A stretch of 43,978 bases of DNA, taken from assembly GCA_003567475.1 (NCBI GenBank), contig PWZL01000032.1, positions 1 through 43,978 on the forward strand, read 5' to 3'. Below, one piece after another: positions 35,950-39,151 of this stretch. Every line of letters begins with the position of its first letter. The first letter of the stretch is position 1. Made by a program: the position numbers and the translations under genes. The notes beneath the pieces are model-generated. The model saw only the letters and a list, made by a program, of their open reading frames with translations. It made no database searches and was not told where the DNA came from. Source of the stretch: Gammaproteobacteria bacterium. Lineage in GTDB: Bacteria > Pseudomonadota > Gammaproteobacteria > Steroidobacterales > PWYM01.

Positions 35950-36525
35950 TCAGCGCGACAGGGCCTCGTCGATGGCGGCCTGCAGCGCAGGATCATCGGG
36001 CGTCGTTCGCGAGCCGAATTCAGCCACCAGCCGGCCCTGCCGATCCACGACGTACTTGTGGAAGTTCCAACGCGGCGGACTGGCGCCCTGGCGCTGGAGC
36101 TCCGCGAACACCGGGTTGACGGCGCCGCGCGCCACCGGGCTGGGCGCAAGCATGGGAAAGCTCACGCCGTAGTTGATGTAGCAGACCTCGGCGGTGACGG
36201 CCTCGTCGTCGTCTTCCTGGCGGAAGTCGTTCGATGGAAACCCCAGAACGACCAGGTCGTCATCGCGACGCGTCTGCCACAGGGACTCCAGCCCAGCGAA
36301 CTGGCCGGTAAATCCGCAGTAGCTTGCAGTATTCATCACGACCAGTGCCCGTCCCGAGTAGTCACAGAGCGAGAGCTGCTCGCTGGAATGAAGTCGTGGC
36401 AAGCTATGGGCGAGTATCGCCGGACAGGCATCATCGCCACCCTCAGGCGCCGCGTGTGCTGCTCCCGGCGAGGCGAGCAGGGCCAGCGCGAGTCCCTGCG
36501 CCAGCAGTCCTTTCAGTGCGGTCAT
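35950..36525 (-). CDS. Periplasmic glutathione-peroxidase-family protein
   Basis: A 191-residue thiol peroxidase with a Sec signal peptide (LLAQGLALALLASPGAAHA, cleavage about residue 25). The peroxidatic Cys70 is in NTASYCGFTGQF, the LVVLGFPSNDFRQE block follows, and the Trp/Asn partners are in RWNFHKYVVD. The Sec codon of animal enzymes is a normal TGC here. A cysteine also appears in DDDEAVTAEVCYINYGVSF, in the region where thioredoxin-dependent members carry the resolving Cys. ATG 36525 has GGAG nine bases ahead. It is convergent with the FAD oxidase gene (36 bases). It would reduce peroxides in the envelope; the reductant there is unclear. Confidence 0.85.
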   Translation of the reverse strand: MTALKGLLAQGLALALLASPGAAHAAPEGGDDACPAILAHSLPRLHSSEQLSLCDYSGRALVVMNTASYCGFTGQFAGLESLWQTRRDDDLVVLGFPSNDFRQEDDDEAVTAEVCYINYGVSFPMLAPSPVARGAVNPVFAELQRQGASPPRWNFHKYVVDRQGRLVAEFGSRTTPDDPALQAAIDEALSR

Positions 36526-36609: not shown

Positions 36610-36685
36610 GGCCTGGAGCGGGCTCGAACCAGGCCCATTGATCACGCCCGTTGGTCAGGCCTGTGGACCAGACCCCGCACGGGTC
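36610..36685. repeat. Paired inverted repeats downstream of the DsrE-like gene
   Basis: GGCCTGG (36610-36616) pairs with CCAGGCC (36629-36635), and GACCC (36671-36675) with GGGTC (36681-36685). The last arm overlaps the stop codon of the minus-strand DsrE-like gene. The layout, with GGGTC/GACCC at a stop codon and a nearby hairpin, recalls the element at the clpB 3' end, but similarity is weak. It may be an exonuclease block or terminator for the gene on the minus strand; no T-run is present. Confidence 0.35.
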
Positions 36686-37187
36686 AGAAAGTGAAGTAAC
36701 GCACGCCCTCACCAAGCATGTAGGCTGCGACCTCCGGGGGCATTGCGGTGCCGACACCCGCGATCAGGTCTTCATCGGTCCATTCGGTATTCGGCAGGAA
36801 GATCGCGCAGACATCCACCGTGACGCCGTCGTTGATCAGCCCGCGCAGCAACTGCTGGGGGGTGATGCCGCGGGGCGCGAGGGGCGCGGCGTCCAACCCG
36901 TCGACCGCCAGCTCGCCACCGGGGCCGCAGAGCAGGATGCGCAGCGCGGCCCCCTGATCATGCATCTGGCGCGCCAGCACCATGGCCATGCCGCGGGTCT
37001 GGTTGTCCTCGGCGGTGACGACCACGAACACCTGCGGGCCACCCGCCGCCTCGCTGGAGGCCTCGGTGGCCGCTGCCCCATCGGTCATGTCGGTGGCGGG
37101 GGCGGGGGTCTCGTTGGCGCAGGCACTGGTCGTGGCCAGTGCCAGGCCGCCGAGCAGGGCGAGCATCGGGGAGAGCACTCTGGGCAT
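36684..37187 (-). CDS. Exported DsrE-fold protein, possible lipoprotein
   Basis: A 167-residue protein with an N-terminal signal (VLSPMLALLGGLALATTSAC); Cys23 could be lipidated, though TSAC is a weak lipobox. Residues 29-50 are a low-complexity Thr/Ala/Glu linker. The rest fits the DsrE/YchN family: QVFVVVTAEDNQTRGMAMVL, ALRILLCGPGGELAV, and ITPQQLLRGLINDGVTVDVC with two conserved-position cysteines. The function of exported members is unknown; cytoplasmic relatives relay sulfur. ATG 37187 has AGGAG eight bases ahead. The EncFtn-like gene is upstream on the same strand, 144 bases away. Confidence 0.78.
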   Translation of the reverse strand: MPRVLSPMLALLGGLALATTSACANETPAPATDMTDGAAATEASSEAAGGPQVFVVVTAEDNQTRGMAMVLARQMHDQGAALRILLCGPGGELAVDGLDAAPLAPRGITPQQLLRGLINDGVTVDVCAIFLPNTEWTDEDLIAGVGTAMPPEVAAYMLGEGVRYFTF

Positions 37188-37331: not shown

Positions 37332-37625
37332 TCAGCCGTGTTTCGGCGCCAAGGGCTTGTCCGTGAACAGGTGATCGCGCAGTTCCTTGTCCATGACTGG
37401 ATCCTTGCGTCGGATCCACTCGAGTGTCATGGCAGCGTGCTCTTTCTCCTCGTCGCGATTGTGGGTCAGAACGCGCTTGAGTTCCGGATCCGTGCAGACG
37501 TCGATGCGCTGGTTGTACCAGTCGACCGCCTCGAGTTCCTCCATGAGCGAGATGATGGCGCGATGCATCTCGCGGGTTTCGTCGCTCAGCAGTTCATAAG
37601 GTTCGTGATATCCCTCGTTGGCCAT
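37332..37625 (-). CDS. Encapsulated-ferritin-like (EncFtn) protein, no encapsulin nearby
   Basis: A 97-residue two-helix ferritin-like protein. MEELEAVDWYNQR and LTHNRDEEKEHAAMTLEWIR match the EncFtn family of Rhodospirillum rubrum and Haliangium, decamers that oxidise Fe(II) at a site formed between subunits. By alignment the metal ligands are Glu30, Glu60 and His63, with Trp36/Tyr37 at the site. The usual C-terminal encapsulin-docking extension is absent: the protein ends TDKPLAPKHG. No encapsulin shell gene occurs anywhere in the window. ATG 37625 has GGAG ten bases ahead; an upstream frame to 37691 looks spurious. It is divergent from speD. Confidence 0.87.
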   Translation of the reverse strand: MANEGYHEPYELLSDETREMHRAIISLMEELEAVDWYNQRIDVCTDPELKRVLTHNRDEEKEHAAMTLEWIRRKDPVMDKELRDHLFTDKPLAPKHG

Positions 37626-37746
37626 GTTCGCTGTTCTCCGATAGTGGGCTGTTGCGTCACGCGGCGTCCTGCACGCGCAGGGAAAAAACATAGCATAGAC
37701 TGACCCTCAGGCCCGATCACCGGAGCCGCGGCAGTGATGAGGTCGT

Positions 37747-37775
37747 TTGCACGCCTTCGGCCGCACGGGTATATT
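37747..37775 (+). promoter_or_regulatory. Likely sigma-70 promoter of speD-speE
   Basis: TTGCAC (37747-37752), a 17-base spacer and TATATT (37770-37775) give a fair sigma-70 promoter ending 54 bases before the speD start. It lies in the 204-base region shared with the divergent EncFtn-like gene. Confidence 0.5.
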
Positions 37776-37829
37776 TCGCGGCCACTTCGTGCGGACCAGA
37801 CGCTGCGCCGTCGCAGGGAGGACCTGTCG

Positions 37830-38264
37830 ATGCACTCACTGGGCAGGCAGATTGTTGCCGAGTTCTACCACTGCGAAGAAGCCTGTCTGGCCGATTCCGA
37901 CTACATCGCCGCGGTGATGCAGGGCGCCGCCGAGGTCGCTGGCGCCACCATCGTCACCCAGACCTTTCATGAGTTCTCGCCGCACGGTGTCTCGGGGGTC
38001 GTGGTGATTGCCGAGAGTCACCTGTCCATCCACACCTGGCCGGAACATGGTTACGCGGCCGTGGACCTGTTTACCTGCGGTGAGGCCGTCTCGCCAGAAC
38101 TGGCCTTCGAACATCTCAAGATCTGTCTCAAGGCGGGCCAGGTGTCGACCATGGAACTTCGCCGCGGTCAGCTGGAGATGATGACAGCGGACGCCCCGCC
38201 GGAACCGATGGCTGCCGATGCTACGGTGACCCCGCTGCGCCGGATCGGTTCCGCGCAGGCGTGA
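37830..38264 (+). CDS. speD: S-adenosylmethionine decarboxylase proenzyme (short type)
   Basis: A 144-residue pyruvoyl enzyme making decarboxylated AdoMet for spermidine. Self-cleavage at Glu62-Ser63 is predicted in [20 protein letters not shown]; His68 and Cys83 (FTCG) occupy the processing and catalytic positions known from the Thermotoga enzyme. It is the short prokaryotic class (speH type), about half the length of E. coli SpeD. ATG 37830 has GGGAGG eight bases ahead. The last 20 residues are a variable tail. The stop overlaps the GTG of speE, forming a classical two-gene polyamine operon. Confidence 0.95.
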
Positions 38265-39151
38265 AAGCACTCGATCCGGCGTGGCGCGCGCGTTTCGATC
38301 CCTCGCAGTGGTTTCTCGAACCGTGTGAAGAGGTCGGCGCGCTGTTCGGCCTGGAGTGTGTCGAGATGTTGCTGGACGAGCGCACTCCCTGGCAGCACCT
38401 GCAGATCCTGGAGACCCGCCACTTCGGTCGCGTGATGGTCCTGGATGGCTTCCTGATGCTCACCCAGCGCGATCATTTCATCTACCACGAGATGCTGGTG
38501 CATCCGGCGCTGTGCAGCCAGCGCGCACCAAGGCGTGTGCTCATTATCGGCGGGGGAGACTGCGGCTGTCTGCGCGAGGTGCTGCGCCACGACCTGGTCG
38601 AGCATGTCGTCCAGGTCGAGCTCGACGAGCGGGTGACACGTGCTGCGGAACGTTTCTTTCCGGAGCTTTGCGAAGCGAACGACGATCCACGCGCGGAGCT
38701 TGTGTTTGCCGACGGTATTGGCTTTGTTGCAGCGGCGGCGGCTGGCGCCTTCGAGGTGATCATCATCGATTCGACGGATCCTATCGGCCAGGCGGCCCGG
38801 CTGTTCGATCGGGCGTTTTACCGTCAATGCCGTCGGGTCCTCGGCGATACAGGGGTGCTGGCGGTCCAAAGCGAATCACCGATGATTCATCTCGAGGTGC
38901 TTGCCGGCATCCGCGGAGAACTTGCCGCCGCCGGGTTCCCGCATGTCGCTACCCTGCAGTTCCCCCAGCCGACGTATCCGTCGGGGTGGTGGAGCGCGAC
39001 GCTCGCCGGGGGCAGTGCGGTGGCGGCCGTACCGGGGCACGCGGCCGGACCGCTGGAGACCCGCTATTACTCGCGTCAGGTCCATCAGGCAGCGCTGGCG
39101 CTGCCGCGATTCGTCAGTGAGGCTCTCGAGAACAGCGCCGGTTCAGGCTGA
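38261..39151 (+). CDS. speE: Polyamine aminopropyltransferase (spermidine synthase)
   Basis: A 296-residue enzyme transferring aminopropyl from decarboxylated AdoMet to putrescine. Visible are [40 protein letters not shown], the nucleotide loop [16 protein letters not shown], the ribose-binding acidic residue in VQVELDERV, and the catalytic Asp in [23 protein letters not shown] near the C-terminus is typical. GDCG in place of the more common GDGG is also found in Pseudomonas SpeE. GTG 38261 overlaps the speD stop. It ends convergent with mgtE, overlapping by nine bases. Confidence 0.95.

What the first reader, a model, noticed from the sequence alone, without database searches (positions are those of the whole stretch)
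37332..37625. Stand-alone EncFtn ferritin lacking a docking tail and an encapsulin gene
Seen: the two-helix EncFtn core with all iron-site residues, ending about ten residues after the core with no encapsulin-targeting extension; no shell protein gene in 44 kb. Known: EncFtn proteins are normally cargo next to their shell gene, and without it they oxidise but do not store iron. Here the neighbours are a DsrE-fold exported protein and a glutathione peroxidase, pointing to iron or peroxide detoxification rather than storage.
Basis: partly seen in the sequence, partly recalled or inferred. Interest (0 to 1): 0.6.

Follow-up and report, generated by a model that had tools for sequence, protein, structure and literature searches.

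The report
Shell-independent EncFtn-type ferritin
The window encodes a small ring-forming ferritin relative, of a type that a 2024 review still treats as possible cargo of bacterial protein shells; a survey of 323 genomes shows that this tail-less type is widespread, almost always occurs without any shell gene, and is often encoded inside a peroxide-defence operon instead.

Summary
Window 37332-37625 (-) encodes a 97-aa EncFtn with every iron-site residue and no targeting peptide. The whole genome has no intact encapsulin. It does carry the wreck of one: on contig C72 a truncated EncFtn that kept its targeting peptide lies beside a deleted, frameshifted shell gene. The window gene is intact and under strong purifying selection (dN/dS 0.01-0.03).

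It is not an oddity. It is a typical 's-FLP' (PDB 3K6C; named in PMC11202242, which lists its tail LFTDKPIAHE as a putative targeting peptide). Among 323 Gammaproteobacteria, 75 of 95 EncFtn genes stand alone; all lack a targeting peptide, and 69 of 89 EncFtn genomes have no encapsulin. Almost every shell-adjacent EncFtn has a targeting peptide. When both occur, the shell has its own tailed EncFtn. So tail-less EncFtn works without encapsulin, against the putative-peptide idea.

The window's neighbours (DsrE-like protein, glutathione peroxidase) are confined to its genus. Elsewhere the recurrent context is rubrerythrin-RFO-EncFtn-DUF3501, in 19 of 74 standalone loci.

Best reading: a cytosolic ferroxidase ring serving iron/peroxide detoxification, not storage. 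Shell-independence is well supported; the detoxification role is inferred.

The parts
37332..37625 (-). Tail-less (s-FLP type) EncFtn, 97 aa
   Evidence: PF22277 9.1e-43; TIGR04535 over cut-off; 74% identical to N. europaea NE0167/3K6C; dN/dS 0.01-0.03 in the genus
37515..37541 (-). Helix 1 iron-site residues E29, E30, E32, W36, Y37
   Evidence: Map to R. rubrum E31, E32, E34, W38, Y39 (roles from PMC5012862); 99-100% conserved in 155 tail-less homologues
37437..37463 (-). Helix 2 iron-site residues H55, E59, E60, E62, H63 (ExxH motif)
   Evidence: Map to R. rubrum H57, E61, E62, E64, H65; 99-100% conserved in 155 tail-less homologues
37335..37364 (-). C-terminal end TDKPLAPKHG where cargo EncFtns carry 20-40 further residues with a targeting peptide
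   Evidence: 0 of 155 tail-less homologues carry a targeting peptide; a His lies in the last 8 residues in 147 of 155
37634..37639 (-). Ribosome-binding site GGAGAA
   Evidence: Sequence
36684..37187 (-). Exported DsrE-like protein, co-directional downstream; genus-level neighbour, missing in G004
   Evidence: PF02635 E 0.037, below cut-off
35950..36525 (-). Exported glutathione peroxidase-family protein, co-directional downstream; kept beside EncFtn in all four EncFtn-bearing genomes of the genus
   Evidence: PF00255 7.4e-17; not beside EncFtn elsewhere

Best explanation
The gene encodes a cytosolic EncFtn of the tail-less s-FLP clade. It very likely assembles into the same open decameric ring as its 74%-identical homologue 3K6C and oxidises Fe2+ at di-iron centres formed between subunits. 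It does so without an encapsulin: shown by genome content, tail anatomy and a broken shell operon in the same genome. Its likely job, inferred, is to draw down free Fe2+ (using O2 or H2O2) during oxidative stress, together with the aerobic rubrerythrin system, handing Fe3+ to other sinks rather than storing it. Confidence by step: shell-independent about 0.93; ferroxidase about 0.85; oxidative-stress/iron detoxification role about 0.6. The figure below is for the whole chain.
For: Residues and fold family. No intact shell in the genome. Genus comparison: G003 holds this gene plus a separate tailed EncFtn (LGIGSLREE) and intact encapsulin; G002 and G004 hold only this gene, 94-98% identical. 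Selection dN/dS 0.01-0.03. Named genomes with tail-less EncFtn: 47 of 50 have no PF04454, and in the other 3 the shell lies beside a second EncFtn. Class survey: 75 of 95 EncFtn genes stand alone, none with a targeting peptide. The tail-less rows form essentially one clade, 81 of 83 rows. Rubrerythrin-RFO-EncFtn-DUF3501 operon in 19 of 74 standalone class loci (15 families) plus 8 of 79 other homologues; DUF3501 co-occurs with standalone EncFtn (54 of 75 genomes against 93 of 248, p 1.6e-7, not corrected for relatedness).
Against: No tail-less EncFtn has published biochemistry that I found (NE0167 appears in one paper). In this genome the rubrerythrin-RFO-DUF3501 genes lie on another contig without EncFtn, so a shared operon is not shown here. 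About three quarters of standalone loci are not in that operon. Free R. rubrum EncFtn precipitates iron in vitro (PMC5012862), so an unhoused ferroxidase needs an Fe3+ acceptor, unidentified here. Contig C72 has lower GC (0.62 against 0.67), so the broken operon could be foreign or misbinned.
Confidence: 0.62

Rival explanations
1. The tail-less EncFtn is encapsulin cargo after all: the end LFTDKPIAHE (here LFTDKPLAPKHG) acts as an unrecognised targeting peptide.
For: Proposed as putative in PMC11202242, Table 2; the C-terminus including a terminal His is conserved (147 of 155).
Against: 69 of 89 EncFtn genomes in the class and 47 of 50 named genomes have no encapsulin to bind. Where a shell exists it has its own tailed EncFtn. 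LFT[DE]xP also occurs in tailed cargo proteins before their real targeting peptide.
Confidence: 0.04
2. It is a partner of the aerobic rubrerythrin/RFO/DUF3501 peroxide reductase (for example metal delivery or electron transfer) rather than a bulk Fe2+ scavenger.
For: Fixed gene order and spacing between RFO and DUF3501 in most of 27 loci; DUF3501 co-occurrence.
Against: Most standalone EncFtns, including this one, are outside the operon; 93 genomes have DUF3501 without a standalone EncFtn.
Confidence: 0.22
3. It is a relic of a lost encapsulin system drifting toward loss.
For: A broken EncFtn-encapsulin pair lies in the same genome.
Against: dN/dS 0.01-0.03; it groups with tail-less proteins and not with the cargo paralogue; conserved across many families.
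Confidence: 0.02
4. In cells with both kinds, tail-less subunits join tailed subunits in mixed decamers and are packaged passively.
For: Six class genomes plus G003, G009 and G034 hold both kinds or their remains.
Against: Cannot apply to the 69 genomes without a shell, nor to this one, where the shell is broken.
Confidence: 0.05

Closest known systems
s-FLP class, Nitrosomonas europaea NE0167 (PDB 3K6C)
   Same: Length (95 against 97 aa), 74% identity, MANxGY start, LFTxKPxA end, no targeting peptide, all iron-site residues except W36, which is L in NE0167; same clade
   Different: C-terminal APKHG in place of the common IAH[KED]; W36 present here
Encapsulated ferritin FLP-TP: R. rubrum Rru_A0973 (5DA5), H. 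ochraceum Hoch_3836 (5N5F)
   Same: Core and all ferroxidase residues
   Different: They carry a 20-40 residue tail with a GSL-type targeting peptide and lie next to a shell gene; here neither
Aerobic-type rubrerythrin - RFO - DUF3501 cluster (Cardenas et al. 2016, PMC5114695)
   Same: In 27 loci the tail-less EncFtn sits between RFO and DUF3501 or next to them
   Different: In the window's genome the cluster (contig C39) has no EncFtn; the passages of the paper I retrieved do not mention EncFtn
Myxococcus xanthus EncB/EncC
   Same: Two-helix ferritin-like cargo family; weak match (NCBIfam NF058679 74 bits, below its cut-off of 90)
   Different: Longer, packaged, distant in sequence

Membership tests
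EncFtn / PF22277 | Two-helix EncFtn core above the curated cut-off | tested here: met
   144.4 bits against a cut-off of 27
EncFtn / PF22277 | Ferroxidase residues E, Y, ExxH plus entry-site glutamates | tested here: met
   Mapped onto R. rubrum numbering; ~100% conserved in relatives
EncFtn / PF22277 | Metal-dependent decamer with ferroxidase activity | not testable with these tools
   Inferred from the 74%-identical 3K6C (10 chains)
Encapsulated cargo (FLP-TP) | C-terminal targeting peptide | tested here: not met
   Ends LFTDKPLAPKHG
Encapsulated cargo (FLP-TP) | Intact encapsulin gene beside it or in the genome | tested here: not met
   Only a broken PF04454 gene on C72; assembly is 98.4% complete
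s-FLP (short FLP) | About 95 aa, EncFtn core, no long tail | tested here: met
   97 aa; groups with NE0167 and 79 other tail-less rows
s-FLP (short FLP) | Putative C-terminal targeting peptide LFTDKPIAHE functional in packaging | tested here: inconclusive
   Genomic evidence against; no direct packaging test possible
Classical ferritin / bacterioferritin / Dps | Four-helix monomer forming a closed storage cage | tested here: not met
   97 aa, single two-helix EncFtn-like domain; no ferritin/Dps match among the Pfam families listed

The most novel reading that the evidence does not exclude
Tail-less EncFtn is the most common form of the family in Gammaproteobacteria and is an encapsulin-independent enzyme that works with the aerobic rubrerythrin-RFO-DUF3501 peroxide-reduction system. 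Encapsulated cargo would then be the minority specialisation in this class, and the putative targeting peptide of s-FLPs would be wrong.
Probability: 0.45. Interest if true: 0.6.

Novelty: new member of a known kind. Interest (0 to 1): 0.43.

Why it matters
The current structural review leaves open whether tail-less EncFtns are packaged and prints a putative targeting peptide for them. The genome survey answers this: nearly all of them live in cells with no shell. 'EncFtn' therefore does not imply 'encapsulated', and annotation such as TIGR04535 ('encapsulin-associated ferritin-like protein') is misleading for this clade. An iron-oxidising ring with no storage cavity and no shell raises a directly testable question, where the Fe3+ goes, and the rubrerythrin operon says where to look.

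Tried and rejected
PHROGs: no match. PF19307 (family 2 encapsulin) gave nothing in this genome, but no control genome rang either, so that absence is uninformative. The C70 'EncFtn-like' hit (L007) scores better as rubrerythrin (PF02915 2.4e-13 against PF22277 1.2e-6) and is not a third EncFtn. The GPx/DsrE neighbourhood as a functional signature was rejected because it is genus-limited. Dihydrolipoamide dehydrogenase and M13 peptidase neighbours are mainly from Idiomarina-type genomes and were not taken as functional. No structure prediction was run: 3K6C at 74% identity makes it redundant.

Full report
WHAT IS THERE. Window 37332-37625 (-) encodes a 97-aa protein, MANEGYHEPYELLSDETREMHRAIISLMEELEAVDWYNQRIDVCTDPELKRVLTHNRDEEKEHAAMTLEWIRRKDPVMDKELRDHLFTDKPLAPKHG, with a GGAGAA ribosome-binding site 8 nt upstream. 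It matches PF22277 EncFtn-like at 9.1e-43 and NCBIfam TIGR04535 over its cut-off. Its nearest solved relative is 3K6C, Nitrosomonas europaea NE0167, also short and tail-less; R. rubrum and H. ochraceum EncFtn follow. All R. rubrum iron-site residues (roles in PMC5012862) are present two positions earlier: E29, E30, E32, W36, Y37, H55, E59, E60, E62, H63.

THE GENOME DOES HOLD AN ENCAPSULIN LOCUS, BUT A BROKEN ONE. A whole-genome search with PF04454 finds only two fragments, on contig C72, beside a truncated EncFtn. The EncFtn remnant is 55 aa...EELDAVDWYDQRAADEGSLDIGNLRDS: helix 2 with the ExxH ferroxidase motif is gone in frame while a targeting peptide (SLDIGNLRDS) remains. The shell gene lacks about 260 bp of its middle, has an 11-bp insertion and a broken 3' end relative to the intact operon of relative G003. 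Caveat: C72 has GC 0.62 against 0.67. Its katG is 80-83% identical to copies in three genus relatives, which favours its belonging to the genus.

THE GENUS AS A NATURAL EXPERIMENT. G003 (the MAG DLM2.Bin61) has the same tail-less EncFtn plus, on another contig, a tailed EncFtn (ending GSLGIGSLREE) with an intact encapsulin. G002 and G004 have only the tail-less gene and no PF04454. G001 (87% complete) has no EncFtn and only a shell fragment at a contig end. The tail-less proteins are 94-99% identical to the window protein, with dN/dS 0.01-0.03. So the gene is kept under strong selection whether or not a shell is there.

BEYOND THE GENUS. Of 50 of their genomes searched whole, all have EncFtn and 47 have no PF04454. 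In the other three (Sulfuricella T08, DLM2.Bin61, Thiogranum BWSM_146) the shell is next to a second EncFtn with a targeting peptide (L014, L197, L198). In an even sample of 323 class genomes at least 90% complete, 89 have EncFtn (95 genes) and 20 have encapsulin; 69 have EncFtn and no encapsulin. All 20 encapsulin genomes carry an adjacent EncFtn; for the window's own genome this is the truncated remnant. This is an internal positive control for the shell search.

TAILS SPLIT WITH CONTEXT. The 74 standalone proteins other than the window's are short without a targeting peptide (91-103 aa; one, L176, has a 122-aa Lys/Pro/Ala-rich end but no targeting peptide). Of the 20 shell-adjacent genes in the survey, 18 have clear targeting peptides, one (G284) ends in a short variant, GFTVGKP, and one (G229, L151) is an in-frame deletion that fuses EncFtn to half a shell. 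In an extended set, 0 of 155 tail-less sequences match a targeting-peptide pattern. On a tree, 81 of 83 tail-less rows form one group (support 90/81) and the label needs 3 changes against 19.4 in shuffles. With only about 100 columns, finer branches are unresolved.

NEIGHBOURS. In the genus, EncFtn is followed by the DsrE-like gene (absent in G004) and a GPx-family gene. In 153 loci outside the genus neither is found. The DsrE assignment is weak (PF02635 E 0.037). Both have signal-like N-termini by eye, while EncFtn has none, so a direct joint pathway is doubtful. The recurrent context elsewhere is rubrerythrin (PF02915), an Fe-S oxidoreductase (PF02754 CCG), EncFtn, DUF3501 (PF12007): 19 of 74 class loci from 15 families and 8 of 79 other loci, same strand, near-constant spacing. 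For the loci fetched with 1.5-kb flanks the rubrerythrin gene lies outside the stretch read, so there only RFO and DUF3501 were seen. The rubrerythrin-RFO-DUF3501 cluster is known as the aerobic-type rubrerythrin cluster (PMC5114695); the passages I retrieved do not mention EncFtn. DUF3501 is enriched in genomes with standalone EncFtn (54 of 75 against 93 of 248; p 1.6e-7, uncorrected for phylogeny). In the window's genome the cluster sits on C39 with RFO and DUF3501 10 bp apart and no EncFtn.

MECHANISM. Shown: core and iron-site residues, absence of tail, absence of an intact shell, purifying selection, clade membership. From the literature: free EncFtn is a ferroxidase that cannot mineralise iron, and storage needs the shell (PMC5012862); 3K6C is a decamer (PMC11202242). 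Inferred: the ring oxidises Fe2+ in the cytosol to limit Fenton chemistry, in concert with peroxide reduction by rubrerythrin; Fe3+ goes to an unidentified acceptor. The tail-less clade also differs from cargo by near-invariant C44 (98%), N38 (92%) and I71 (96%), and a His near the C-terminus (147 of 155). These are candidates for a shell-free function.

COMPARISON WITH WHAT IS KNOWN. PMC11202242 defines the class s-FLP, says it was first called non-encapsulated, and lists LFTD(E/N)KPIAHE as a putative, uncharacterised targeting peptide. The window protein is a plain member. I found no description of either in the six library searches made (which exclude most subscription journals).

VERDICT. 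Real, correctly read in anatomy, ordinary within its class. More interesting as a class than as a single gene.

Noticed in passing
G000 contig C72:11950-12680 (L003 5950-6680, - strand): Decayed EncFtn-encapsulin operon next to katG: the EncFtn remnant keeps its targeting peptide but has lost helix 2; the shell gene has a deletion, an insertion and a broken 3' end.
   Followed up: yes
L151 (G229:C227, 5531-6205): Second decayed encapsulin operon: an in-frame deletion fuses a tail-less EncFtn core to the C-terminal half of the shell protein; the same genome keeps an intact standalone EncFtn in a rubrerythrin operon (L157).
   Followed up: partly
L153, L155, L157, L159, L170, L181, L186, L188-L191, L106, L112, L119, L122, L126, L127, L129, L131: Recurrent four-gene operon rubrerythrin - Fe-S oxidoreductase (RFO) - tail-less EncFtn - DUF3501 (gene order varies in L129).
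   Followed up: yes
L176 (G118:C20): Standalone EncFtn with a 30-residue Lys/Pro/Ala-rich tail (KAEKPAAKPKAAPKAKKPTPKSE) and no targeting peptide; possibly a nucleic-acid-binding tail.
   Followed up: no
Window 37332-37625, residue C44 and the C-terminal His: C44 is 98% conserved in tail-less EncFtns but variable in cargo EncFtns; a His near the C-terminus is present in 147 of 155 tail-less proteins.
   Followed up: partly
L007 1138-1734 (G000:C70): 198-aa two-part rubrerythrin-like protein overlapping the 3' end of a gene that looks (by eye) like a 2-oxoacid:ferredoxin oxidoreductase beta subunit.
   Followed up: no
G272:C2 314 kb and 3.48 Mb (L144, L209): Two copies of the same EncFtn-encapsulin operon on one contig of one genome, plus a standalone EncFtn.
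   Followed up: no
Window 37734-39151 (+): speD-speE pair divergent from EncFtn; conserved beside it in G002 and G003 but absent from this spot in G004.
   Followed up: no
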